Positions 1 through 35,088 of a DNA stretch of 35,088 nt are shown here, piece after piece. Location: the IMG/VR virus record IMGVR_UViG_3300030102_000728, positions 1-35,088 of that record. One strand, written 5' to 3'. The notes under the pieces were generated by a model. It worked only from the letters and a program-made list of their open reading frames with translations, was not told the origin of the DNA and did no database searches. The stretch comes from a virus. Positions within the stretch are counted from its first letter, which is position 1. Every line of letters starts with the position of its first letter. The translations under genes were made by a program, and so were the position numbers.

Positions 1-61
1 TAATAACAAATTGATTTGCTATTTTATTCCCATTGTTGCTTGTTATGTTTTCTACTTTCAT
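1..61 (-). CDS. 5' fragment of a 92-residue accessory protein cut by the window edge
   Basis: The ATG at 61 is preceded by the Shine-Dalgarno core AAAGGAAAC. The 20 readable codons start MKVENITSNNGNKIANQ and are identical to the first 20 codons of the complete gene at 34715-34993. This is the same gene met again after going round a circle, not a second gene. Its upstream neighbour here is the 70-residue gene at 125-337, whereas in the right-hand copy it is the zinc-ribbon-like gene. Confidence 0.85.
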   Translation of the reverse strand, partial: MKVENITSNNGNKIANQFVI

Positions 62-124
62 TTGTTTCCTTTCAGTTAATTAAAGTTAATAAATAAATAT
101 GGCTATAATTAGGCATTGTTTTTA

Positions 125-337
125 TTATAACCAAGGCTCAACATCACAAGTTGAGACAATATCTTCATCAGATTTTATATTAATTGGAAATCTAATATAA
201 TTTCTGAAATTTATGTTTTTAAAGTAATCAAAATTTTCTAATGAGTACATATACATAAATTCATTCGGTTTGTTTAAGCCTTTTAATTTAGCATTTTCAA
301 ATGCTTCTTTATGATTTCTTTGGTACATAGTTTTCAT
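125..337 (-). CDS. hypothetical accessory protein, 70 aa
   Basis: I do not recognise this protein. An in-frame GTG extends the reading frame upstream, but the ATG at 337 is preferred because AAAGGAAACT lies directly before it, as for its neighbours. The product begins MKTMYQRNHKEAF and ends DVEPWL; it is soluble-looking and rich in Asn, Tyr and Phe. It lies 10 bases downstream of the 52-residue gene. Both genes are absent from the alternative copy of the locus at the right end of the window, so it belongs to a two-gene cassette that comes and goes. Confidence 0.7.
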   Translation of the reverse strand: MKTMYQRNHKEAFENAKLKGLNKPNEFMYMYSLENFDYFKNINFRNYIRFPINIKSDEDIVSTCDVEPWL

Positions 338-347
338 AGTTTCCTTT

Positions 348-506
348 CTATTTGTTGTATTGTTGATTTTTAAAAATTTCACGTTTTAAATTTTTGTGAT
401 CTTTTTCTGTCATTTCATCTTCATATTTAAAAATATCAGCATAAGTTTTTACTGATGGATCAAATGGCGGATATTTAATTTGTATTAGTTTTCTTTGCTT
501 TGTCAT
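348..506 (-). CDS. hypothetical accessory protein, 52 aa
   Basis: The reading frame runs from ATG 506 to TAG, with AAAGGAAACT immediately upstream. The product starts MTKQRKLIQIKYPPFDPSV, contains an acidic/basic helix around residues 25-45 and ends QQYNK. It has no membrane segment and no cysteines. The stop codon lies just before the ribosome site of the next gene. It forms one removable unit with the 70-residue gene: the 444-bp difference between the two ends of the window removes both. Function unknown. Confidence 0.65.
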   Translation of the reverse strand: MTKQRKLIQIKYPPFDPSVKTYADIFKYEDEMTEKDHKNLKREIFKNQQYNK

Positions 507-523
507 AGTTTCCTTTCAGTTGT

Positions 524-742
524 TTATTTAATAAATTTAATTTGTTTTTGTGTCAATTTTGTGGCATGAAAACCGACAGCTTCAAGATCACTTGTAAAGA
601 ATTGGCAACTATCACACCTTTCAATATGTGGTTTATGATAAGGATCATTTTTTGAAATTAAGCCTGTACTCTTTACATCTTGAAAATATCCATAACCCTC
701 GCAATCTTTACAGTTATTTATTTTGTATTTATATTTTTGCAT
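524..742 (-). CDS. small zinc-ribbon-like protein, 72 aa
   Basis: Two CxxC pairs are visible: NCKDCEGYGYF near residues 10-20, which resembles half of a DnaJ CxxCxGxG repeat, and RCDSCQFF near residues 42-49. Together they could hold one zinc ion. Residues 51-72 form a basic, probably helical tail (ATKLTQKQIKFIK). The start at 742 overlaps the stop of the 116-residue gene by one base, so translation is probably coupled. The 3' part of this gene recurs at 35012-35088. Zinc binding is inferred from the cysteines; the role is unknown. Confidence 0.7.
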   Translation of the reverse strand: MQKYKYKINNCKDCEGYGYFQDVKSTGLISKNDPYHKPHIERCDSCQFFTSDLEAVGFHATKLTQKQIKFIK

Positions 743-1092
743 TATTTACCTTTTGTTGATTGAACATAATCTTTTAAAATATAAAAGTTAAAAGTATATT
801 CATTGTTTTTATTAAAATTATTTACAAATCTTTGAAATTCTTTTTTTGAACCTCTAAGAGTATGACAGGCACAATCTAAAAATTTTTCACCATTACAATT
901 TAAATCTTCAACATTAAGCCAATCAATATCGTTAATTAAATGTAAATGTTTTTTATAAATAATATGGTTTGACCATTGACCACCTTGATCACTAGCAATG
1001 AAGATAAAATTATTTAAAGGTGAAATTGCATACCAACTAGCATAACTTCCTCTAAAATTTTTTCTAGTTTTTTTCCAAATTAATTTTATCAT
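742..1092 (-). CDS. hypothetical accessory protein, 116 aa, first gene of the island operon
   Basis: The frame is open further upstream, but the ATG at 1092 follows a good ribosome site (AAAGGAAACT) and gives 116 residues starting MIKLIWKKTRKNF. The product has a Trp/Tyr-rich N-terminal half (SYASWYAI, GGQWSNHI) and a CAC motif near residue 75. I do not recognise it. It is the promoter-proximal gene of a leftward run of small genes that continues through the circular junction to 32913. The gene-free stretch 1093-1584 lies upstream. Confidence 0.7.
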   Translation of the reverse strand: MIKLIWKKTRKNFRGSYASWYAISPLNNFIFIASDQGGQWSNHIIYKKHLHLINDIDWLNVEDLNCNGEKFLDCACHTLRGSKKEFQRFVNNFNKNNEYTFNFYILKDYVQSTKGK

Positions 1093-1181
1093 AGTTTCCT
1101 TTGGTTGATTTGTTTTTTTTTGCATAATTAAAAGCATCTTAAATTAATAAGGCACAATTATGGCAGATACAAATAAGATAT

Positions 1182-1566: not shown

Positions 1567-1777
1567 ATACACTAGATATAGTATATGGATTACTTTAGTT
1601 CAGACGATTTAGATTCAGTTGCTTATATTGAAGAAGATACAAACAATGTCATAATTAAGTTCTATGGCTTTCCCAATAAATTAGCAGCTGAATTGTTTAT
1701 TAGTTATGCTATGCTCAATATGGGTTTTGATTACCAGCCTATATCTAGCACAAAGTCTGACATGATACACTAGATAT
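1567..1777. repeat. 13-bp direct repeat flanking the 62-residue gene
   Basis: ATACACTAGATAT occurs at 1567-1579 and again at 1765-1777. The left copy ends six bases before the start of the 62-residue gene. The right copy contains its TAG stop and overlaps the ATG of the terminase gene. Recombination between them would remove the small gene cleanly and leave the terminase start intact. Confidence 0.6.
1585..1773 (+). CDS. hypothetical protein upstream of the large terminase, 62 aa
   Basis: The product is acidic at the N-terminus (MDYFSSDDLDSVAYIEED), followed by a probable beta strand and a helix (KLAAELFISYAMLNMGF). Its stop lies two bases before the terminase ATG. No strong Shine-Dalgarno sequence precedes the start. 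The position just before the large subunit is where a small terminase might sit, but the sequence shows no helix-turn-helix and a better small-subunit candidate lies at 32439-32912. Function unknown. Confidence 0.6.
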   Translation: MDYFSSDDLDSVAYIEEDTNNVIIKFYGFPNKLAAELFISYAMLNMGFDYQPISSTKSDMIH

Positions 1778-3047
1778 GGATATTAAAATACCTTACACAC
1801 CAAGAAAACATCAAGCCTACTTGCACAAACAAATAGATAAAAACAGATGGAACGTATTGGTATGCCATAGAAGGTTTGGCAAAACAGTATGTATGATCAA
1901 TCACCTAATTAGGTCAGCATTACTGTCCAAACTAAAGAACCCTAGGTTTGCCTACATTGCACCCACCTTCAAACAAGCAAAGTCTATTGCATGGGATTAC
2001 ATGAAACAGTTCACCGCTAAGATACCCCACACTAAATTTAATGAAACAGAACTTCGTGTAGATTTACCTAATGGTTCTCGTATTACCTTGCTAGGCTCAG
2101 AATCGCCAGATGGTTTAAGAGGTATATACCTTGATGGCTGCGTGATTGATGAGTACGCAAACGTGAACAGTAAATTGTTTCCAGAAATAATTAGACCAGC
2201 ATTATCAGATCGTAAAGGCTACTGTGTGTTTATAGGTACACCAATGGGAATGAACAATAACTTTTATGAGTTGTACCAACACGCACAAGGTGCGGAAGAT
2301 TGGTTTAACTATAAAGCTAAAGCTAGTGATACTAAAATTGTTGATCAAGATGAATTAGATAAAGCAAAAGAAGTTATGGGTGAGAAGAAGTACCAACAAG
2401 AGTTTGAGTGTGATTGGATAGCGAACATTGAAGGTGCAGTATATGGGGATATTATTGCAAAACTAGATGATGACAAACAACTTACAAGAGTTCCCTACGA
2501 TCCTTCACTACCAGTATCTACTGCATGGGATCTTGGGGTCTCCGACCACAGTAGTATAATATTTTATCAACAGTTAGGTAGAAGCATTAATATAATAGAC
2601 TACCACGAAGAAAGAGGTCAAGGTTTACCATACTATGTTAAAATGGTTAATGACAAAGAGTATGTCTACAAAGATCATTTTGCACCACACGACATTGAAG
2701 TTACCGACTTTGGTAATGGTAAAACCAGAAGAGAAGTCGCCTATCAATTAGGAGTAAGATTTAAAGTTGTTCCAAAAATTCCATTAGAAGATGGCATCCA
2801 CGCAACCACAATGATCTTACCCAGATGTTGGATTGATACTGACCATTGCAAAAAGTTAATAGATGCGTTAAGACATTACCACAGGAAGTATATTGATAAA
2901 AACAGAATGTTTAGATCAAAGCCTGTACACGATTGGAGTTCTCATGCTTGTGATGCAATGCGTTATCTAGCAGTTGGACTACAAGAAATTAATACTAGAC
3001 AATCAGCTCCACAAAGTGTAGCAGATAATAGTTACAGGATTATATAA
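1776..3047 (+). CDS. terL: terminase large subunit
   Basis: This is the ATP-driven DNA packaging motor and nuclease that fills the prohead. The N-terminal ATPase shows a Walker A of the phage type, HRRFGKT (residues 31-37), a Walker B with catalytic glutamate, CVIDEY (122-127), and a coupling motif GTP at 154-156. The C-terminal RNase-H-like nuclease shows WDLG (Asp252) and the late acidic motif HDWSSHACDAMRY (385-397). At 423 residues it is short but complete for the Terminase_6 type. It starts two bases after the upstream small gene and is followed after two bases by the small linker genes. The docking protein is the connector at 3996. Its likely small subunit lies about 4 kb upstream on the circle, beyond the inverted accessory island. 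Confidence 0.93.
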   Translation: MDIKIPYTPRKHQAYLHKQIDKNRWNVLVCHRRFGKTVCMINHLIRSALLSKLKNPRFAYIAPTFKQAKSIAWDYMKQFTAKIPHTKFNETELRVDLPNGSRITLLGSESPDGLRGIYLDGCVIDEYANVNSKLFPEIIRPALSDRKGYCVFIGTPMGMNNNFYELYQHAQGAEDWFNYKAKASDTKIVDQDELDKAKEVMGEKKYQQEFECDWIANIEGAVYGDIIAKLDDDKQLTRVPYDPSLPVSTAWDLGVSDHSSIIFYQQLGRSINIIDYHEERGQGLPYYVKMVNDKEYVYKDHFAPHDIEVTDFGNGKTRREVAYQLGVRFKVVPKIPLEDGIHATTMILPRCWIDTDHCKKLIDALRHYHRKYIDKNRMFRSKPVHDWSSHACDAMRYLAVGLQEINTRQSAPQSVADNSYRII

Positions 3048-28396: not shown

Positions 28397-29065
28397 TTAC
28401 TGACCATTGTTTAATTGTAATTCACGAGTTTCAGCAATGTCTGTGACTTGCCTGTATGCTCGTAAATTATTTCTTAGTAGATATTCAACATTTGCTCTGT
28501 GCTTTTCTTTAGCAATATTAAAATCTTTTAAAGATTTAGCACTTTTAAGTTCATGTTTTATATCTTCTACATCTATGGTTTCATCCATGTATGTAGGTTC
28601 TTCAACAGATTGCTCTGAAGAATTTTTTTTAGATGGCAATGTATCATATTTCCTTTCTAAAAATGGTACTGGCTCATAACCATCCTCATCTTTGATACCT
28701 GTTTTAAGATTTAATAAATTTAAGAACGCATACTTTCTTGAGTATGACATGGCATTACCAGTTCCAAATTTATCAAGATTACCAAATGCTGAACACCCAT
28801 CAACAAGTATATGTTGCGTTGGATCATCAACATCATAAACTTTCATAGTACATACGACCATTACTTGTTTTATGTTTGGTACAATCTCTGTCAGATAATT
28901 ACAAGTCGCATACAAACCATTGTCTAATAAGGCTTGTGTTGCAACTGCTTGTACATTATCATGTAGCAATGGGTTAAAGTGCATCCCATTTGCCTTTGCT
29001 CCTTTCTTGACACTCTTTGCACTTAAACAAGCATCATGTAGTTTTTGATATATATTTCTTTTCAT
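28397..29065 (-). CDS. erf: ERF-family single-strand annealing protein
   Basis: Residues about 99-130 contain KFGTGNAMSYSRKYAFLNLL followed by GIKDEDGYEP, the core signature of ERF recombinases (G-x-x-x-S-Y-x-R-[KR]-Y-x-L and the acidic D-E-D-G). The N-terminal part (FNPLLHDNVQAVATQALLDN) also fits. The 222-residue length is usual. It anneals complementary strands in phage recombination and genome circularisation. AAAAGGAAACA precedes the ATG. A PD-(D/E)XK nuclease gene lies upstream in the same operon, giving the classical nuclease plus annealase pair. Confidence 0.85.
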   Translation of the reverse strand: MKRNIYQKLHDACLSAKSVKKGAKANGMHFNPLLHDNVQAVATQALLDNGLYATCNYLTEIVPNIKQVMVVCTMKVYDVDDPTQHILVDGCSAFGNLDKFGTGNAMSYSRKYAFLNLLNLKTGIKDEDGYEPVPFLERKYDTLPSKKNSSEQSVEEPTYMDETIDVEDIKHELKSAKSLKDFNIAKEKHRANVEYLLRNNLRAYRQVTDIAETRELQLNNGQ

Positions 29066-29178: not shown

Positions 29179-29394
29179 TTAGTTTGCTCCTTTCTTTAAT
29201 ACTTCACAGTTTTTTTTGTTTATATCTTTTTGCCAATCAGATTTTTTTTCTACAACCCATACATAAGAAGAAACTACTATTTCATTATTTAAAGTACACT
29301 TCTTACCAAATACAAGTTTAGTTTTTGGATCTTCATGTGCAAATGCACTTGTTGTCATAATTAAAGACAACAATACTATCATCATTTTATTCAT
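29179..29394 (-). CDS. small exported protein with signal peptide, 71 aa
   Basis: The N-terminus MNKMMIVLLSLIMTTSAFAH is a textbook signal peptide: lysine, hydrophobic core, and cleavage after AFA at about residue 19. The mature part of about 52 residues has two cysteines (KKCTLNN and KKNCEVL) that could form a disulfide, and a YVWVVEKK strand. It would act in the periplasm or membrane. Coming between recombination genes in the early-type operon, it may alter the host envelope, for example to exclude other phages; this is inference. It overlaps the nuclease gene by eight bases. Confidence 0.7.
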   Translation of the reverse strand: MNKMMIVLLSLIMTTSAFAHEDPKTKLVFGKKCTLNNEIVVSSYVWVVEKKSDWQKDINKKNCEVLKKGAN

Positions 29395-30310
29395 GTTTTA
29401 TTCCCCATAGGTTAGTTATTAGTTTTAATTGTTCATCTGCTAAATCCTTATAATAAAAAGGATGATACATATCCGGTGGCTCACACATTTGTGCAAGTTC
29501 GGACAGACTTCCTTTGCAGAACATAATCATACGTTCCCAAAGTAAAATCTTCTCAACCATTTTATAGTAAAGAAATTCCAGATGGTCTTTCTTCATTAAC
29601 TCATGTGTATTATCAAAGATAATATGTTCCTTATCATTTGTATAAATTAAATAAGGTATCTTCTTAGTACACATATAGTAGAACGAAGTCTGTGTAAGGT
29701 TATCTGTTGCAGGTTCAGTAGGCAATGGTTGTGTACTCATTGTCCACTCTTCCTTGTTCTTAACCTTTCTAATATTTGGTGGCTTTGTTTTTAATTCTAT
29801 AAATACTTTATCCGTAAGATAATCTACCTTACCTAAAATATCTTTTATCATTGTCATTTCTTTTTTTCTAACATGATATTCACAAATTAGTTTGTCATCC
29901 TTAACAATATCTTTAACAACTTTCTCTGTCACACCTATGCAATCAATCGCATATTCAATCATTTTTTCTCTAGCGAATTTATCCTTGTCATCTACCGGTG
30001 GTTTTTCATTTATAATACCAAGTTCATTTTGAAATATTTTATTAAAATCTCTATCCCACTTTTCTTCTTTCATGGTAGATGTTTTCCAAACTTCATGTCC
30101 AATTAATTTTTGTACTGTGTTGTTTACAAGATTGCCAAAGTTAGCTTTATATCTAAATGCAAAAGTTCTTCTGACTTCTTGTGGAAAAGTATAACCAATT
30201 AAATTTTTGGCAAAGGGTGTTGAGGTTGATGAGTATGACCAATGATCTAAACCCTTACCACCATTGAATATTGAAAATGCGTCTTGTATTAATTGTTCTT
30301 GTTTTTTCAT
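29387..30310 (-). CDS. PD-(D/E)XK family nuclease (RecB/exonuclease-like), 307 aa
   Basis: The catalytic core is visible: GKVDYL with Asp163, the strand FIELKTK with Glu172 and Lys174, and a downstream helix NLTQTSFYYMC with the Gln and Tyr typical of the RecB/lambda-exonuclease branch, followed by PYLIYTN. The N-terminal half is helical. It probably resects DNA ends to expose single strands for the ERF protein two genes downstream. It is the first gene of the leftward operon, 100 bases from the divergent rightward operon. Confidence 0.8.
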   Translation of the reverse strand: MKKQEQLIQDAFSIFNGGKGLDHWSYSSTSTPFAKNLIGYTFPQEVRRTFAFRYKANFGNLVNNTVQKLIGHEVWKTSTMKEEKWDRDFNKIFQNELGIINEKPPVDDKDKFAREKMIEYAIDCIGVTEKVVKDIVKDDKLICEYHVRKKEMTMIKDILGKVDYLTDKVFIELKTKPPNIRKVKNKEEWTMSTQPLPTEPATDNLTQTSFYYMCTKKIPYLIYTNDKEHIIFDNTHELMKKDHLEFLYYKMVEKILLWERMIMFCKGSLSELAQMCEPPDMYHPFYYKDLADEQLKLITNLWGIKHE

Positions 30311-30410
30311 AAGTTCCTAGTTTTTCACTATCTATACACATTATTATTTACTTGTAAAGCATTAAATATGATATATATACATACAAATCAGAGCAACAAA
30401 GAAAGGAAAT
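30311..30410. promoter_or_regulatory. divergent promoter/operator region of the two early-type operons
   Basis: On the plus strand TTGTAA (30352-30357) is followed after 16 bases by TATATA (30374-30379). On the minus strand TTTACA (30358-30353) is followed after 16 bases by TATAGA (30336-30331). Both -35 boxes lie on the palindrome TTTACTTGTAAA at 30347-30358, so one bound protein would control both directions. CTATACACA (30332-30340) is also an eight of nine DnaA-box match over the leftward -10 box. The Cro-like gene directly to the right is the obvious regulator candidate. Confidence 0.5.
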
Positions 30411-30641
30411 ATGACACTTGAAGAATACAGAAAAGAGAAAGGTCTATCCTATTATAATTTTGGGGTAGAACTTGGCATACGTGGAGTACAAAATCCCGGC
30501 ACGTCAGTTCAACGTTGGTGTTTAACTGCAAAGGTAAAACGTTTTCCCGATCCAGAAATGGTAAAGAAAATTTTAGAAGTCACAAAAAATAAAGTCACTA
30601 TAAAGGATCTATATGAAAGTTGGTGGAACACCAAAGTTTAA
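30411..30641 (+). CDS. Cro-like helix-turn-helix protein, 76 aa
   Basis: The product has the layout of a small phage HTH regulator: MTLEEYRKEKGLSYYNFGVE, then the likely recognition segment TSVQRWCLTAKVKRFPDPEM and a closing helix EMVKKILEVTKNKVTIKDLY. The N-terminal LEEYRKEKGLSYYNFGVELGI is the usual HTH entry. The ribosome site AAAGGAAAT precedes the ATG. It lies first in the rightward operon, next to a palindromic site, and probably represses or balances the divergent promoters. Confidence 0.65.
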   Translation: MTLEEYRKEKGLSYYNFGVELGIRGVQNPGTSVQRWCLTAKVKRFPDPEMVKKILEVTKNKVTIKDLYESWWNTKV

Positions 30642-30882
30642 ATACAAACGAGTAAGAATTTATTGGCAAGACATTGTATCTAATTCTGAATGGATGACAC
30701 TTGAAAAAGCTAAAGATCAAGTTTATTCTTTCTGTGAAGATACAGGTTATTTATTATACAAAGATCAAAAGAAACTTATTATATTTGCATCACATAGCTT
30801 TGATGATGATGGTACACTTACAGTTGGCAACACTACTGTATATCCTAGATCAGTTGTTAAAAAGATAGAGGTATTAAAATGA
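30613..30882 (+). CDS. hypothetical small alpha/beta protein, 89 aa
   Basis: The gene overlaps the Cro-like gene by 29 bases with AAAGGA before the ATG. The product contains RVRIYWQDIVSNSEWMTLEK, CEDTGYLLYKDQKKLIIFAS and TVYPRSVVKKIEVLK. This pattern (YWxDIVSxSxWxxLExAK ... GYLLxxD ... P.xVVKKIExL) is common in phage proteins of unknown function placed near early regulators. Confidence 0.65.
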   Translation: MKVGGTPKFKYKRVRIYWQDIVSNSEWMTLEKAKDQVYSFCEDTGYLLYKDQKKLIIFASHSFDDDGTLTVGNTTVYPRSVVKKIEVLK

Positions 30883-31052
30883 CCAATGATAAAATGTTTG
30901 ATGAGATAGGTTGTCCGGATGAGCTAAAGAAATGTAAGGAAGAAATTAAACGACATAAAAAACACATTGAGAAACTATCCAATCAGCTATTGGATTATGA
31001 AAGATTAATAGAAGAAAAAGATAACGAAATAATAATAATAAAAAACAGATGA
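30879..31052 (+). CDS. small coiled-coil protein, 57 aa
   Basis: The start overlaps the preceding stop (ATGA). After MTNDKMFDEIGCPDELKKCK the rest is one long charged helix (IKRHKKHIEKLSNQLLDYER) with an Ile-rich end IIIIKNR. No known family. It might dimerise; role unknown. Confidence 0.6.
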   Translation: MTNDKMFDEIGCPDELKKCKEEIKRHKKHIEKLSNQLLDYERLIEEKDNEIIIIKNR

Positions 31053-31062
31053 AAGGGTAAAG

Positions 31063-31155
31063 ATGATTGAAATATTTTTACAAGCACCAAAGGAACTACA
31101 AGTGTTGGCTTTATTTCTTGTAGTTTATGTCACTTGGAACTTTATTAATGGCTAG
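31063..31155 (+). CDS. membrane mini-protein, 30 aa
   Basis: The ATG follows AAAGGGTAAAG. The peptide MIEIFLQAPKELQVLALFLV plus VYVTWNFING has one hydrophobic span (about residues 13-27). Its TAG overlaps the start of the next gene, so it is part of the coupled operon. Function unknown. Confidence 0.5.
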   Translation: MIEIFLQAPKELQVLALFLVVYVTWNFING

Positions 31156-31522
31156 ACAAACCTACGCATTTTCTAATGGCGATTATAACGATTTTCATAG
31201 AAAATATAATGGCATTGCCATGATTGATATTGACAGTATTGAGTGCTGTCCACGTTGCTACGAGCCTTTAGCTATAATTGAGACGTGTTATGATAAAGGT
31301 CAGAAATATAAGGCTACAACCTTGTCAAAGATAGTCGCTAGTCGCCTAAATATACCCTGTTTTTTGGTATTCTATAAGAATTTGACCGACACCACCCTAA
31401 CTTTCCGTATCAAGCGAATAACGAGCTCTCCGACAGACTTTGAGTTAATGAATGAAGATCAGTGGGTATCCATCTTGCTAGACCTACAACAAAATCACAG
31501 GAAATTTTGCAACCATGAATAA
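31148..31522 (+). CDS. putative PD-(D/E)XK-like nuclease with CxxC motif, 124 aa
   Basis: An upstream ATG at 31127 is possible, but the ATG at 31148 fits the overlap with the preceding stop and the family-like start MARQTYAFSNGDYNDFHR. The core reads AMIDIDSIECCPRCYEPLAI followed by IETCYDKGQKYK and IPCFLVFYKN. Acidic residues at 27, 29, 32 and 45 plus Lys54, with a helix LSKIVASRLNIP, fit a PD-(D/E)XK-like fold. Similar GDYxxFHR...DIDxIE proteins occur in many phages and are often called nucleases without tests. CCPRC may bind metal. Confidence 0.5.
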   Translation: MARQTYAFSNGDYNDFHRKYNGIAMIDIDSIECCPRCYEPLAIIETCYDKGQKYKATTLSKIVASRLNIPCFLVFYKNLTDTTLTFRIKRITSSPTDFELMNEDQWVSILLDLQQNHRKFCNHE

Positions 31523-32210
31523 TACTCGTGCTTTTTTACACATAACCTATAAGTTATATGGACACCTTGATAAATTAAGCGGTACTAAAAAATCTAACTG
31601 TTTAAACTGCTATCTATCTTTAATGAAACACGCATGGAAAAAGAATAACTATGAATGTGGCTTGAGATATTCTACAATCGCCAAAGAAACTAAATTATCT
31701 CGTATAACTGTTAGACGTACCTTAGATACTCTAGAAAAATTACATATTATATCTACTGTCAGAGGTAGGTCCGGAAAAACCTATAAAATCAACGAGTTAT
31801 TTATTAAAACTGAATCAGATGGATCAATTTTATACACTAATAATAATAAGAAGTATAAAAAAGATCACTCTAATGTATATAAAAGATCAGTATTAGAAGA
31901 AACAATATATATTAATAATATAGAAAAAATTATAAGAGATAATAGAAATGATAAAGATAGTATGATACTAAACTTATCAAAGCTCCCCCTGTCAGACCTT
32001 AATTCAGATACTAACAATCCTTATTATGTTAAATTGGCTATTGAAAAGAAAGCTGAACTAGATCGTGAGAGTAAGGCAACCTACGTACATCCTCAAAAAG
32101 TAATTAATGAATTAAACAAGATAAGTAAAAATAGCAATCCACGATACCGAGAAAAAGTTTCTTTTAATAAACGTAATAATCTTGATTATAAAGGGAGACC
32201 TAAAAAATAA
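31515..32210 (+). CDS. winged-helix DNA-binding protein, possible replication initiator, 231 aa
   Basis: The gene overlaps the previous one by eight bases. Residues about 40-100 form a winged helix: GLRYSTIAKETKLSRITVRR with the recognition helix, then TLDTLEKLHIISTVRGRSGK as the wing. An N-terminal helical segment (LNCYLSLMKHAWKKNNYECG) is as in HTH_36-type phage replication proteins. The rest is charged and mostly disordered, ending in basic residues. With no polymerase or helicase in the window, it may load the host replisome, or it may be a transcription regulator. Confidence 0.65.
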   Translation: MNNTRAFLHITYKLYGHLDKLSGTKKSNCLNCYLSLMKHAWKKNNYECGLRYSTIAKETKLSRITVRRTLDTLEKLHIISTVRGRSGKTYKINELFIKTESDGSILYTNNNKKYKKDHSNVYKRSVLEETIYINNIEKIIRDNRNDKDSMILNLSKLPLSDLNSDTNNPYYVKLAIEKKAELDRESKATYVHPQKVINELNKISKNSNPRYREKVSFNKRNNLDYKGRPKK

Positions 32211-32638
32211 TGGTAGGTAGACCAATGCGTAAAGTATTCTGTCAAGGCTTTACTCGTGCTGGTAGACGTATTGGAAAACTAATACCATGTAAAATGAAAG
32301 GTTATGAACTTGCAAATGGCACATATTATTGTAAGTATCATGGTTATCAAAATGTCAAAGGCTTTAGAAAGAAAAACTATACACATGAAACAAGGATCAA
32401 ACAATTAAGTAAATTACAACAGTTTAGGAACTATACAGATGACCAACTCAAAGAATACTATTACAACCAAGTCAAAGTCAGAATTGATAACAACGAGCCA
32501 AGCCGATACAATTTGCGAAAAACTAACGAGAGGTTTAACTCTTACAGAAATACTAGAGGAAAAACAGTATCAGTTCAGCTTGATGAAATTTTATCATTTC
32601 TTAAAAAAAAATCCAGAACTGAACGAGAGGATAACTGA
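32210..32638 (+). CDS. Cys/His-containing phage protein overlapping the small terminase, 142 aa
   Basis: The start overlaps the preceding stop (TAATG). Residues 1-50 hold KVFCQGFTRAGRRIGKLIPC and YYCKYHGYQNVKGF, a Cys...Cys...CxxxH pattern, like phage proteins with a C-x-x-HG motif that often precede small terminases. The part from about residue 77 on is also read in another frame by the terminase gene and is low in recognisable structure. It could be a zinc-binding packaging accessory; not established. Confidence 0.6.
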   Translation: MVGRPMRKVFCQGFTRAGRRIGKLIPCKMKGYELANGTYYCKYHGYQNVKGFRKKNYTHETRIKQLSKLQQFRNYTDDQLKEYYYNQVKVRIDNNEPSRYNLRKTNERFNSYRNTRGKTVSVQLDEILSFLKKKSRTEREDN

Positions 32639-32912
32639 AGCTAGGAAGAATGGTGTTCAAACTTTAATAGATAAATTGCTGCAAGTCTTTCAATATCAAG
32701 AGATAGAAAATCCTAATCAAATACTATGGATTAGAGAAAAAACTAAATTTATTACCTTCCTCGCTAACAAGCTAACAGATTTATATTCAGATAATAAAGT
32801 CCAGAATGTTAAGACAGACCAATCAATTAAAATTTCATGGGAAGATAATCAATCGGATATGATTGATGTATCAGAGGATATAGTTGATATACCCTCTGAT
32901 AATAAAGATTAA
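32439..32912 (+). CDS. terminase small subunit-like protein, 157 aa
   Basis: Residues 20-70 look like the DNA-binding helices of small terminases: SQADTICEKLTRGLTLTEIL followed by FSLMKFYHFLKKNPELNERI and TEARK, the S-xx-xFY-FLxxNPExxxRxxxAR layout. Then come IREKTKFITFLANKLTDLYS and a tail (IKISWEDNQSD), as in Sf6-type small subunits. It would recognise the packaging site and load the large subunit. The first 200 bases overlap the 142-residue gene in another frame. Its stop abuts the stop of the convergent accessory island. Confidence 0.7.
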   Translation: MTNSKNTITTKSKSELITTSQADTICEKLTRGLTLTEILEEKQYQFSLMKFYHFLKKNPELNERITEARKNGVQTLIDKLLQVFQYQEIENPNQILWIREKTKFITFLANKLTDLYSDNKVQNVKTDQSIKISWEDNQSDMIDVSEDIVDIPSDNKD

Positions 32913-33080
32913 TTATTTTAAATCACAAATTCTGCAAACAGTTTCATTTTCATAAGTAAAAAACATATTGTCAGTTTGCTCATCTAAAATATTATTATCT
33001 GGTTTTTCTCCTAAATATTTTTGTATTTGTTTAGGTGTTATTTCGTGGTCAGTTATTCCACATTTATTACATTCACTCAT
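32913..33080 (-). CDS. small zinc-ribbon-like protein, 55 aa, last gene of the island
   Basis: The product starts MSECNKCGITDHEITPKQIQ and ends ETVCRICDLK: two CxxC pairs at the two ends, 42 residues apart, as in a compact zinc ribbon. Its start overlaps the upstream stop (TAATG). Its stop codon begins at the base after the stop of the convergent small terminase gene, so no untranslated base separates the operons. Confidence 0.65.
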   Translation of the reverse strand: MSECNKCGITDHEITPKQIQKYLGEKPDNNILDEQTDNMFFTYENETVCRICDLK

Positions 33081-33304
33081 TATTCCCTTTCCTTTGGATC
33101 TTCAAAGCTAACATGAACAACACAATCTTTTCCCTCGTGTTCATGCCATGCGTCATCTAAATCAGAAAGTAATTGTAAAAACTTTTTACCTCTCATTCCA
33201 TGATCTTGGTTATAACAGCTTTTAGTTATTTCAGCTTTCTTATTTTGTTTTCCATTGTTCCACTTTCTACTCCATGAAACAATCTCGTATTTGTCAATGT
33301 ACAT
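33080..33304 (-). CDS. hypothetical accessory protein, 74 aa
   Basis: AAAGGGAACT lies before the ATG. The product contains MYIDKYEIVSWSRKWNNGKQ, HGMRGKKFLQLLSDLDDAWH and KDCVVHVSFEDPKE, a small alpha/beta plan. It is coupled to the next gene. Not recognised. Confidence 0.6.
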   Translation of the reverse strand: MYIDKYEIVSWSRKWNNGKQNKKAEITKSCYNQDHGMRGKKFLQLLSDLDDAWHEHEGKDCVVHVSFEDPKERE

Positions 33305-33325
33305 AGTTCCCTTTCTTGTTGTTGT

Positions 33326-33526
33326 TTATATTTTTTTAAAACCAAAACATATTTCATTAGAGTTCTCTCCTTGTTCTGTTGAAAATACTCCAATAGGTTT
33401 TAAAGTTTCTATTTCTTCATCACCATTTTCATCTAATATTGAAAATTGAATAGGTGTTTTTAAATTGCAAGTTTCATTACAATTAAAAACATTATTTAAC
33501 AATTTTCTTATTGTCCATTGTTTCAT
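33326..33526 (-). CDS. hypothetical accessory protein, 66 aa
   Basis: The ATG at 33526 follows AAAGGGAACTAA. The product starts MKQWTIRKLLNNVFNCNETC and ends EICFGFKKI; a mostly beta body with three cysteines. The preceding gene overlaps its start by 35 bases. Its leader shares 20 bases with the leader of the 74-residue gene. Confidence 0.6.
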   Translation of the reverse strand: MKQWTIRKLLNNVFNCNETCNLKTPIQFSILDENGDEEIETLKPIGVFSTEQGENSNEICFGFKKI

Positions 33527-33644
33527 TTAGTTCCCTTTCTTGTTGTTTATAATAGGTGTATATTACACCCCTTGCATTTAAAATATTTATGAGAGTTAAT
33601 CTCATAAGTTCTTCTAAATTTTGTTTTTGTAGTTGTTTATTCAT
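33492..33644 (-). CDS. hypothetical helical mini-protein, 50 aa
   Basis: The start ATG overlaps the stop of the 49-residue gene (ATGAATAA). The product MNKQLQKQNLEELMRLTLIN continues with LNARGVIYTYYKQQERELNE and ends inside the next gene. The first 24 residues form an amphipathic helix. The overlap with a neighbour and lack of its own strong ribosome site lower the certainty. Confidence 0.45.
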   Translation of the reverse strand: MNKQLQKQNLEELMRLTLINILNARGVIYTYYKQQERELNETMDNKKIVK

Positions 33645-33786
33645 CATCTTCAGTTTCTTGTATTAATTCACCTTGATCATAACCTTGTTTAATTAATTCT
33701 GCAATATGCTCAAGATCAGCATCATTTGGTTTATAGTTTGGGTAATCATCTATTGTTAGTTTCCACCAGCTTCTTTTTGTTTCCAT
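33637..33786 (-). CDS. hypothetical acidic mini-protein, 49 aa
   Basis: The ATG at 33786 is preceded by the long repeated leader with AAAAGGGAAA. The product METKRSWWKLTIDDYPNYKP continues as NDADLEHIAELIKQGYDQGE and ends with an acidic tail. It resembles small phage proteins with a D-x-x-L-E-H-I-A-x-L-I-x-x-G-x-x-x-G-E helix, of unknown role. Confidence 0.6.
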   Translation of the reverse strand: METKRSWWKLTIDDYPNYKPNDADLEHIAELIKQGYDQGELIQETEDDE

Positions 33787-33820
33787 TTTATTTTTCCCTT
33801 TTGTTTAGTTGTTTATTCAT
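33784..33820 (-). repeat. 37-bp leader repeat, copy 1
   Basis: This block is identical to 34026-34062. In the coding direction it carries the last codon and stop of the upstream gene (GAATAA), a spacer, the ribosome site AAAAGGGAAA and the ATG of the next gene. The second copy does the same for another pair of unrelated genes. Confidence 0.9.
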
Positions 33821-34028
33821 TGTCTTTTTTTAATGGAATATTATCTTGTAGTGATTCAAATAAATTTAAACAGCTACAAATTAATTCTGCTCTATGAACA
33901 GAATCACAAAATGCAACAGTTTCAATTTTACCATTTTGTAAATCATAATTAACACCATTAAGATCACAAAAATAATTACCCTCAAAATATTCTTTGTCAA
34001 TCATATCTATATTTATATATTTAGTCAT
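33813..34028 (-). CDS. hypothetical accessory protein, 71 aa
   Basis: The product starts MTKYINIDMIDKEYFEGNYF and has VAFCDSVHRAELICSCLNLF in the second half, ending KKDNE. Three cysteines lie in a helical hairpin-like part. Both of its ends lie inside the 37-bp repeats, so the gene sits between two identical seams. Function unknown. Confidence 0.6.
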   Translation of the reverse strand: MTKYINIDMIDKEYFEGNYFCDLNGVNYDLQNGKIETVAFCDSVHRAELICSCLNLFESLQDNIPLKKDNE

Positions 34029-34062
34029 TTTATTTTTCCCTTTTGTTTAGTTGTTTATTCAT
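34026..34062 (-). repeat. 37-bp leader repeat, copy 2
   Basis: Identical over 37 bases to 33784-33820; the flanks differ at once on both sides. The two copies are 242 bases apart and bracket the 71-residue gene. Confidence 0.9.
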
Positions 34063-34210
34063 AAGTCCAATCACCTATAAGACATTCATTCCAGTCATAA
34101 TTTTCATGGTTTTCATCAGCTAGTTTCAATGCTTCTTCCATTGAATTAGCTTCTATTTCTGCTTCATGATGTATTGATTGTATTCCGTATACTGTATATT
34201 TTTTTTTCAT
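34055..34210 (-). CDS. DpnD/PcfM-like mini-protein, 51 aa
   Basis: A start further upstream is open, but the ATG at 34210 has AAAGGAAAA before it and gives a family-like product. It reads KKKYTVYGIQSIHHEAEIEA, then NSMEEALKLADENHE and a polar end. The strand-strand-helix layout V-x-x-EIEANSxEEALKLA is that of the DpnD/PcfM-like family of small proteins. The role of that family in phages is unclear. Confidence 0.6.
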   Translation of the reverse strand: MKKKYTVYGIQSIHHEAEIEANSMEEALKLADENHENYDWNECLIGDWTYE

Positions 34211-34211
34211 T

Positions 34212-34391
34212 TTATTTTTCCTTTCTATTTGCTTTGTCAATTATATCATCTGGCAAAGGTTCTATATCGTAGTCGTAATGTATGGCTAAACTGTGTTCAT
34301 CTAGTTCTATTTCCTTTCTTAATCTAGCCAAATAATCATTGAAGTCTTTTATTGTTTTACCTATTTTATCGTAGCTACTATCATCACTCAT
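34212..34391 (-). CDS. hypothetical acidic helical protein, 59 aa
   Basis: The start directly follows the stop of the upstream gene. The product MSDDSSYDKIGKTIKDFNDY continues LARLRKEIELDEHSLAIHYD and ends DKANRKEK; the codons for the last residues also form the AAAGGAAAA ribosome site of the next gene. Mostly helical. Not recognised. Confidence 0.6.
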   Translation of the reverse strand: MSDDSSYDKIGKTIKDFNDYLARLRKEIELDEHSLAIHYDYDIEPLPDDIIDKANRKEK

Positions 34392-34407
34392 TTATTCCTC
34401 GCTTTCT
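34389..34407 (-). repeat. 19-bp seam repeat CATTTATTCCTCGCTTTCT, copy 1
   Basis: Copies lie at 34389-34407, 34563-34581 and 34698-34716. In the coding direction each contains AGCGAGGAA (ribosome site), the stop TAA and the next ATG. In the first two the same bases encode the C-terminal Ser-Glu-Glu of the upstream protein; in the third the site lies just after the stop of the 92-residue gene. Confidence 0.9.
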
Positions 34408-34565
34408 TCATAACTTTCAGTAATTTGAAAGTGATCTCGTTCTATTATTTCATCACCGGAAAAATCACCACTGTTCACAATCTCTTTTGCTTTCTCTAAT
34501 GTTTCAGCTTTTATTTTTACTTGTGATGTACACTCTTCAATAAATGTTATATTATATACTTTCAT
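34392..34565 (-). CDS. DpnD/PcfM-like mini-protein, 57 aa (second copy)
   Basis: The product reads MKVYNITFIEECTSQVKIKA, then ETLEKAKEIVNSGDFSG and an acidic end ESYEESEE. It has the same strand-strand-helix plan as the 51-residue protein two genes away (V-x-I-x-A-E-T-L-E-K-A-K-E-I-V), so both may be distant paralogues. The gene lies exactly between two copies of the 19-bp seam repeat. Confidence 0.6.
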   Translation of the reverse strand: MKVYNITFIEECTSQVKIKAETLEKAKEIVNSGDFSGDEIIERDHFQITESYEESEE

Positions 34566-34581
34566 TTATTCCTCGCTTTCT
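34563..34581 (-). repeat. 19-bp seam repeat, copy 2
   Basis: Identical to the copy at 34389-34407. It joins the 44-residue gene to the 57-residue gene; TAA and ATG are adjacent without any base between. Confidence 0.9.
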
Positions 34582-34700
34582 GGCTCATTAACAAATCTTA
34601 CTACCATGACTATTCCATTTTCATCTACATGTTCTACTTCAATCTTATGTGTAGGACATTCATTGATCCATTTATTTATTTCTTCATCATATATTTTCAT
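34566..34700 (-). CDS. hypothetical mini-protein, 44 aa
   Basis: The product MKIYDEEINKWINECPTHKI continues EVEHVDENGIVMVVRFVNEP and ends ESEE. A short helix is followed by two strands. The gene sits between copies 2 and 3 of the 19-bp seam repeat. Its last residues equal those of the 57-residue protein because of that repeat. Confidence 0.6.
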   Translation of the reverse strand: MKIYDEEINKWINECPTHKIEVEHVDENGIVMVVRFVNEPESEE

Positions 34701-34716
34701 TTATTCCTCGCTTTCT
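34698..34716 (-). repeat. 19-bp seam repeat, copy 3
   Basis: Identical to the copies at 34389 and 34563. Here it follows the 3' end of the 92-residue gene, so the stretch AGCGAGGAATAA lies between two genes rather than at the end of one. Confidence 0.9.
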
Positions 34717-34993
34717 ATTTGTTTAAGTCTGTTAAGATATACTCACCGCTTTTTATTTTGGCTCGTGTATCTTTTATAGTTTCACCTAAAAATATATTTC
34801 TATATTTGCCTGTGGTGTTGCTATAATTCCAATATTTTTTATCTAATTCCACAGGTTTTAAATAATAAGAATTATATTTTTTTACAATCATTGAATTATA
34901 AGATTGAAAAAATTGATTCCCATTATCATCAGTAATAACAAATTGATTTGCTATTTTATTCCCATTGTTGCTTGTTATGTTTTCTACTTTCAT
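34715..34993 (-). CDS. hypothetical accessory protein, 92 aa
   Basis: AAAGGAAACA precedes the ATG. The product contains NQFVITDDNGNQFFQSYNSM, then IVKKYNSYYLKPVELDKKYW and RNIFLGETIKDTRAKIKSGE. The beta-rich first half (VITDDNGNQFFQSYNSMI) suggests a small barrel; not recognised. This is the complete copy of the gene that is cut at the left edge of the window. Confidence 0.7.
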   Translation of the reverse strand: MKVENITSNNGNKIANQFVITDDNGNQFFQSYNSMIVKKYNSYYLKPVELDKKYWNYSNTTGKYRNIFLGETIKDTRAKIKSGEYILTDLNK

Positions 34994-35088
34994 TTGTTTC
35001 CTTTCAGTTGTTTATTTAATAAATTTAATTTGTTTTTGTGTCAATTTTGTGGCATGAAAACCGACAGCTTCAAGATCACTTGTAAAGA
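34933..35088. repeat. terminal repeat of the window, in an alternative (444-bp shorter) arrangement
   Basis: Bases 34933-35009 are identical to 1-77. Bases 34996-35088 are identical to 508-600. The two matches share the 14 bases GTTTCCTTTCAGTT, present at 64-77 and 508-521. The right end therefore closes the circle but skips 444 bp of the left end, which hold the 52- and 70-residue genes. By subtraction the circle is 34932 bp with them or 34488 bp without. Confidence 0.95.
35012..35088 (-). CDS. 3' fragment of the zinc-ribbon-like gene, cut by the window edge
   Basis: This is identical to 524-600, the last 25 codons and stop of the 72-residue zinc-ribbon-like gene. It is the same gene in the alternative arrangement, where it lies directly upstream of the 92-residue gene. 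Confidence 0.85.
   Translation of the reverse strand, partial: FTSDLEAVGFHATKLTQKQIKFIK

What the first reader, a model, noticed from the sequence alone, without database searches (positions are those of the whole stretch)
32913..35088. Accessory island built of cassettes whose seams are repeated stop/ribosome-site/start blocks
Between unrelated small genes the junctions recur: a 37-bp block at 33784 and 34026; a 19-bp block at 34389, 34563 and 34698; TAGTTCCCTTTCTTGTTGTT at 33304 and 33528; CATAGTTTCCTTT at 335, 504 and 1090. Repeats end where the unrelated genes begin. Homology at start regions would let the phage's own ERF and nuclease swap, delete or insert single genes without breaking frames. 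Together with the 444-bp difference at the ends this suggests a gene-shuffling system with seams that are also translation signals.
Basis: partly seen in the sequence, partly recalled or inferred. Interest (0 to 1): 0.75.

Follow-up and report, generated by a model that had tools for sequence, protein, structure and literature searches.

The report
Phage genes swapped at ribosome-site seams
In viruses of the ocean's commonest bacteria, a block of tiny genes is gained and lost one gene at a time, and the joins fall in short repeated sequences that also tell the ribosome where one gene ends and the next begins.

Summary
The repeats are real and at the stated coordinates. The window is an uncultured HTVC010P/Skadi-type pelagiphage. 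The island is the minus-strand small-gene array between TerS and TerL and continues past the contig end (32913-35088 plus 1-1137). In 64 related islands it runs from 1.4 to 4.7 kb with 238 gene families; the 22 islands most like the window share only two families in half or more. The seams carry stop, Shine-Dalgarno and start, and belong to map positions rather than to genes. The contig ends are two alleles differing by exactly 444 bp (two genes) at a 14-bp seam repeat. A same-strain contig carries one extra gene (264 bp, 12-bp repeat) and a third allele (10-bp repeat). Eleven of about 20 gene-sized island differences (flanks ≥95%) have 10-26 bp junction homology; four differences in other genes have 0-3. 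ERF involvement is inferred, and whether the seams evolved for shuffling is unknown. Enrichment of breakpoints at gene starts is not special to the island; junction homology and position-specific seams are the real evidence.

The parts
32913..35088 (-). Right part of the cassette island: small minus-strand genes (55, 74, 66, 49, 71, 51, 59, 57, 44, 92 aa and the 51-aa ORF 33492-33647) downstream of TerS
1..1137 (-). Left part of the same island (genes 125-337, 348-506, 524-742, 742-1092) up to the stretch before TerL
34698..34716 (-). Seam type A copy 1 (AGAAAGCGAGGAATAAATG)
34563..34581 (-). Seam type A copy 2; encodes the C-terminal ESEE* of the upstream gene 34566-34700
34389..34407 (-). 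Seam type A copy 3; encodes the C-terminal ESEE* of the upstream gene 34392-34565
34026..34062 (-). 37-bp block copy 1: last codon + stop + spacer + seam type B (AAAGGGAAAAATAAAATG)
33784..33820 (-). 37-bp block copy 2
34208..34225 (-). Seam type b (GAAAGGAAAAATAAAATG) after backbone gene fam0
33634..33645 (-). 12-bp GATGAATAAACA, site of a 264-bp single-gene insertion in same-strain contig L271
33304..33323 (-). 20-bp seam, one copy; junction of the 224-bp single-gene difference seen in L014
33528..33547 (-). 20-bp seam, other copy
33326..33526 (-). 66-aa gene absent from L014
34996..35009 (-). 14-bp seam GTTTCCTTTCAGTT at the junction of the short allele
64..77 (-). 14-bp seam, one copy flanking the two-gene segment in the long allele
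508..521 (-). 14-bp seam, other copy flanking the two-gene segment in the long allele
125..337 (-). fam81 (70 aa), absent from the short allele and from one L271 allele
348..506 (-). fam80 (52 aa), absent from the short allele
34715..34993 (-). Backbone gene fam1 (92 aa, phrog_21575)
34212..34391 (-). Backbone gene fam0 (59 aa)
34392..34565 (-). Cassette fam50: 97.4% identical single-gene block in L034, both ends in the 19-bp seam
32439..32912 (+). TerS (left anchor)
1776..3047 (+). TerL (right anchor)
28397..29065 (-). ERF-family single-strand annealing protein, candidate recombinase
   Evidence: PF04404, 37.2 bits, cut-off 25
29387..30310 (-). Counterpart of the gene annotated 'putative nuclease' in Skadi phages; no Pfam family here

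Best explanation
The island is a polycistronic array of small, mostly non-homologous genes between TerS and TerL. Single genes or short runs are gained, lost and exchanged by recombination at the seams. A seam is a 10-40 bp stretch with the last codons and stop of one gene, the Shine-Dalgarno site and the ATG of the next. Each map interval has its own seam type: A, GAAAGCGAGGAATAA|ATG, between fam1 and fam0; B, AAAGGGAAAAATAAA|ATG, after fam0; C/D, AAAGGAAAC(A/T), before fam1. Any cassette recombined at the seam keeps stop, ribosome site and start in place. SHOWN: the repeats; the content turnover; position-specific seams shared by unrelated genes; cassettes more similar than the flanking genes; same-strain alleles whose junctions are the longest available short homologies. 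INFERRED: that the event is short-homology annealing between direct repeats or between co-infecting phages, most likely helped by the phage's ERF protein and nuclease; that the seam's main selected function is translation, probably coupled stop-start, with recombination as a consequence; that cassettes serve host takeover or counter-defence (one is an Ocr relative).
ERF present; the seam A 18-mer is found in 89 viral stretches but only as scattered singletons in 257 Gb of cellular genomes.
Against: About 9 of 20 gene-sized island differences between contigs with flanks of 95% or more show 0-4 bp exact homology; some may be older or multi-step events. Block ends also cluster at gene starts outside the island, so selection against broken genes contributes. 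Evidence comes from metagenome contigs without reads; one allele sits next to an N-gap in a scaffold (L271). Gene calls are heuristic. No experiment ties ERF to these events. Eight cultured Skadi isolates from one site show essentially the same island layout, so variation is not seen in every small sample.
Confidence: 0.8

Rival explanations
1. Random illegitimate recombination plus selection: breaks happen anywhere, but only those at gene boundaries survive because genes abut.
For: Block ends also cluster at gene starts in the early and late regions of the same phages. Some island indels lack junction homology.
Against: It predicts junction homology near 0.5 bp. Three same-strain junctions have 14, 10 and 12 bp, each at or next to the best of thousands of viable or local alternatives, and eight more events have 10-26 bp. 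It does not explain position-specific seams.
Confidence: 0.12
2. Convergence: the seams look alike because each gene needs a strong Shine-Dalgarno site in an AT-rich genome; no recombination signal.
For: The shared core is the Shine-Dalgarno/ATG. Average seam similarity between random genes is already 44%.
Against: Seams of equal function differ by map interval (GAGG, AAGGGA and AAGGAA cores) yet are identical within one, over 15-20 nt and with rare codons. Random seams share 12 nt in only 4% of pairs.
Confidence: 0.05
3. Tandem gene duplication followed by rapid divergence of the bodies, leaving identical seams.
For: Adjacent genes share seams more than distant ones. A few neighbours look vaguely alike (34392-34565 and 34055-34210).
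Against: Adjacent pairs with shared seams are homologous by blastp in 2 of 80, against 5 of 398 without. Empty sites and moved cassettes exist.
Confidence: 0.05
4. Assembly artefact: the alternative ends and joins are chimeras made by the assembler at repeats.
For: The contig breaks in the island. L271 contains N-gaps, one next to an alternative join.
Against: The joins share only 10-14 bp, shorter than assembly k-mers in common use (own knowledge). The same cassettes occur in different backgrounds in many metagenomes. Gene-content variation is seen across dozens of continuous contigs.
Confidence: 0.05

Closest known systems
PeSL cassettes of T4-type phages (Arbiol 2010, Comeau 2014; known here only through PMC4503421)
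   Same: Short repeated regulatory sequences between small accessory genes of a lytic phage mediate gene-by-gene shuffling
   Different: PeSLs are early promoter plus stem-loop. Here the repeat is stop + Shine-Dalgarno + start, without stem-loop or promoter excess, and of several position-specific types
Start-Associated Sequences (SAS/ESAS) of Cluster K mycobacteriophages (PMC3203893)
   Same: Short repeats at the ribosome-site position upstream of many unrelated non-structural genes; the upstream stop codon sometimes lies inside the repeat
   Different: SAS is one 13-bp consensus (GGGATAGGAGCCC); a translation role was proposed and, in the passages read, no exchange was linked to it. Here several AT-rich types vary by map position and junctions of gene gain and loss fall in them
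Short boundary sequences between modules of lambdoid phages (own knowledge)
   Same: Homology at module edges used for exchange
   Different: Here the edge is the translation signal itself and the unit is a single small gene
Relaxed recombination by Rad52-like phage recombinases including Erf (PMC3945230)
   Same: An ERF protein is encoded; such enzymes recombine short, diverged homologies
   Different: The assays read there used substrates of hundreds of bp; 10-26 bp seams are far shorter
Hypervariable region of HTVC010P-type phages (PMC10504331)
   Same: Same phage group, variable region
   Different: The published region is in virion/tail-fibre genes, not this TerS-TerL island

Membership tests
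HTVC010P/Skadi-type pelagiphages | Gene content and order matching cultured members | tested here: met
   Nearly all matches are pelagiphages; Skadi 81% and HTVC203P 76% over 70% of the region 29300-35088, with matching gene order
T4 PeSL shuffling cassettes | Stem-loop in the repeat | tested here: not met
   Three seams fold at 0 to -0.4 kcal/mol, no better than shuffles
T4 PeSL shuffling cassettes | Early promoter in the repeat | tested here: inconclusive
   Promoter-like sites in the island are no more frequent than in shuffles; the scan covers sigma-70 consensus only
T4 PeSL shuffling cassettes | Repeats delimit exchanged genes | tested here: met
Cluster K SAS | 13-bp GGGATAGGAGCCC consensus | tested here: not met
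   Seam consensus is AT-rich AAAGGAAAC / AAAGGGAAAAATAAA / GAAAGCGAGGAATAA
Cluster K SAS | Repeat occupies the ribosome-site position before unrelated genes | tested here: met
ERF single-strand annealing proteins | PF04404 above its curated cut-off | tested here: met
   37.2 bits against cut-off 25 for 28397-29065
ERF-driven exchange | Seam events depend on ERF | not testable with these tools
   needs an ERF-minus phage

The most novel reading that the evidence does not exclude
The seams are under selection as recombination sites: a dual-use code in which position-specific stop/ribosome-site/start sequences keep frame and expression and also act as addressable docking sites, so that a population keeps a shared pool of interchangeable single-gene cassettes and reassorts them through the phage's own annealing protein, like an integrase-free integron.
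Probability: 0.25. Interest if true: 0.88.

Novelty: new variant of a known kind. Interest (0 to 1): 0.64.

Why it matters
How phage mosaics arise, by homology at gene edges or by random breakage plus selection, is a long-standing question. Here same-strain alleles show single genes entering and leaving at 10-20 bp homologies that double as translation signals, in one of the most abundant virus groups in the sea. It makes the question countable from metagenome reads and testable in cultured pelagiphages (HTVC203P and the Skadi isolates). It also points to a rich pool of tiny candidate host-takeover genes, one of them an Ocr relative.

Tried and rejected
Paralogue explanation for shared seams: rejected. 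RNA structure in seams: none. Promoters or terminators at seams: none above shuffles, apart from one palindrome at 33555. Breakpoint position as proof of seam use: weakened by the control regions, so the argument was moved to junction homology. Host origin of seams: the 18-mer in 257 Gb of genomes gives 18 unrelated singletons, about chance level. Variation among Skadi isolates: essentially none seen in island layout. Moved families within the fam1/fam0 group: too few (three families) for a formal test of whether they take the local seam. Literature search for ribosome-site microhomology in phage mosaicism: no paper held. The PeSL papers themselves are not held. Defence-system library on 80 cassette proteins: no match. 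Exact single-gene differences bounded by the 37-bp pair were not found among relatives with flanks of 95% or more.
Full report
WHAT IT IS. The window is an uncultured pelagiphage of the HTVC010P/Skadi group. The finding's region is the right part of a minus-strand array of small genes that runs from TerS (32439-32912) across the contig ends to the stretch before TerL (1776-3047).

OBSERVATION. Each covers the end of one gene, the Shine-Dalgarno site and the ATG of the next. Seam A is read in frame as the last residues of the upstream protein: 28 proteins of 23 unrelated families end in ESEE*. Of these, 25 use the same 15 bases although AGC is about 16% of serine codons and GAG about 21% of glutamate codons, so the constraint is on nucleotides.

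RELATIVES. TerS and TerL searches in IMG/VR gave about 140 loci; 64 distinct TerS-TerL islands could be cut out (the 64 include the Skadi-1 isolate and the two window alleles). They range from 1.4 to 4.7 kb and hold 574 called genes in 238 families, 116 of them single. In the 22 islands of the window's group (with fam1 and fam0) there are 113 families; only those two occur in half or more, and 71 occur once. At 90-97% nucleotide identity of the flanking genes, islands share only about 13-15% of families.

SEAMS BELONG TO POSITIONS. Type A lies between fam1 and fam0, type B after fam0, and types C/D before fam1. Seams with both neighbours of different families, compared between genomes, are at least 80% identical in 12.6% of same-interval pairs and 0.8% of different-interval pairs; a permutation of interval labels within genomes puts the observed excess about nine standard deviations above the null. 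Neighbouring genes share 12 or more seam bases in 16.7% of cases against 6.0% after shuffling gene order, and this is not due to paralogy. The 18-mer of seam A occurs in 89 stretches of viral contigs and only as scattered singletons in cellular genomes.

GAIN, LOSS AND EXCHANGE AT SEAMS. (1) The two contig ends are alleles: removing 444 bp (fam80 and fam81) from one gives the other exactly, with a 14-bp repeat at the junction; of 60,671 distinct deletions that keep both neighbours and a Shine-Dalgarno site, two have homology that long. (2) Contig L271 is the same strain (99.5-100%). It holds one piece in which fam80 is joined directly to fam1 (fam81 missing, 10-bp repeat, the only one of 21,040 alternatives that long) and another with fam80-fam81-fam1. 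(3) L271 also has one extra 81-aa gene: a 264-bp insert at window 33634-33645 with a 12-bp repeat, the best of 3,515 local alternatives. (5) Over all fetched contigs with flanks of 95% or more there are about 20 gene-sized island differences. Eleven have exact junction homology of 10-26 bp, nearly always the best of about 9,500 local alternatives; the rest have 0-4 bp. Four differences in other genes, free of N-gaps, have 0-3 bp. (6) Recent exchange: fam50 (34392-34565) is 97.4% identical in L034 over 194 bp, from 16 bases before its ATG to 4 bases past the next ATG, both ends in the 19-bp seam, whereas TerS and TerL of the two phages are 87% and 89% identical; other cassettes behave alike.

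CONTROL. Ends of homologous blocks lie in the seam zone in 69% (3' ends) and 46% (5' ends) of cases against 15% expected. They also cluster at gene starts in the early and late regions. Position alone therefore shows mainly that broken genes are weeded out; the junction homology and the position-specific seams carry the argument.

MECHANISM. Most likely, strands that share a seam anneal. Within a genome this deletes the gene between two seams; between co-infecting phages it inserts or replaces one. Because the seam holds stop, ribosome site and start, every product is expressed. The phage encodes an ERF annealing protein, and Rad52-like phage recombinases including Erf recombine short and diverged homologies better than RecA (PMC3945230). 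That ERF acts here is inference. Replication slippage would explain deletions but not transfers.

FUNCTION OF CASSETTES. Mostly unknown. One family is an Ocr DNA-mimic relative (PF08684); Ocr blocks restriction in T7 (own knowledge). Weak leads are a DpnD/PcfM-like gene (34392-34565) and an RNA-polymerase-inhibitor-like gene (34055-34210). A host-takeover and counter-defence role fits but is inferred.

COMPARISON. It works like the PeSL cassettes of T4 phages (as described in PMC4503421) but lacks their stem-loop. It resembles the SAS repeats of Cluster K mycobacteriophages in position (PMC3203893) but not in sequence, and the passages read there do not link SAS to exchange. The published hypervariable region of this phage group is elsewhere, in virion genes (PMC10504331).

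VERDICT. A real and well-supported case of single-gene turnover at translation-signal seams; a new variant of a known kind. Whether recombination is a selected function of the seams is open.

Noticed in passing
window 33555-33569: Palindrome GGTGTAATATACACC, conserved at the same map position in many islands of the group; operator- or terminator-like, and it marks the end of the type B interval.
   Followed up: partly
L142 1483-1797 (minus): A cassette in this island position encodes an Ocr-like DNA mimic (PF08684, E 9e-8), an anti-restriction protein family.
   Followed up: partly
window 1569-1775: A repeated ACACTAGAT box lies before the gene at 1585 and before TerL, the plus-strand side of the island.
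   Followed up: no
window 34055-34210 and 34392-34565: Two cassettes have weak matches to an RNA polymerase inhibitor family (phrog_1307, E 0.0013) and DpnD/PcfM (E 0.0015).
   Followed up: no
L183 10806-11049: A similar gene-sized difference with 13-bp homology at a gene start in a contig with few matches to this island's proteins, suggesting that seam exchange is not limited to this island.
   Followed up: no
window 33492-33647: A 51-aa ORF starting MMNKQLQKQ overlaps the 110-base spacer; its first bases ATGAATAAACAACTA recur at the front of both 37-bp blocks, as if inserts duplicate them.
   Followed up: partly
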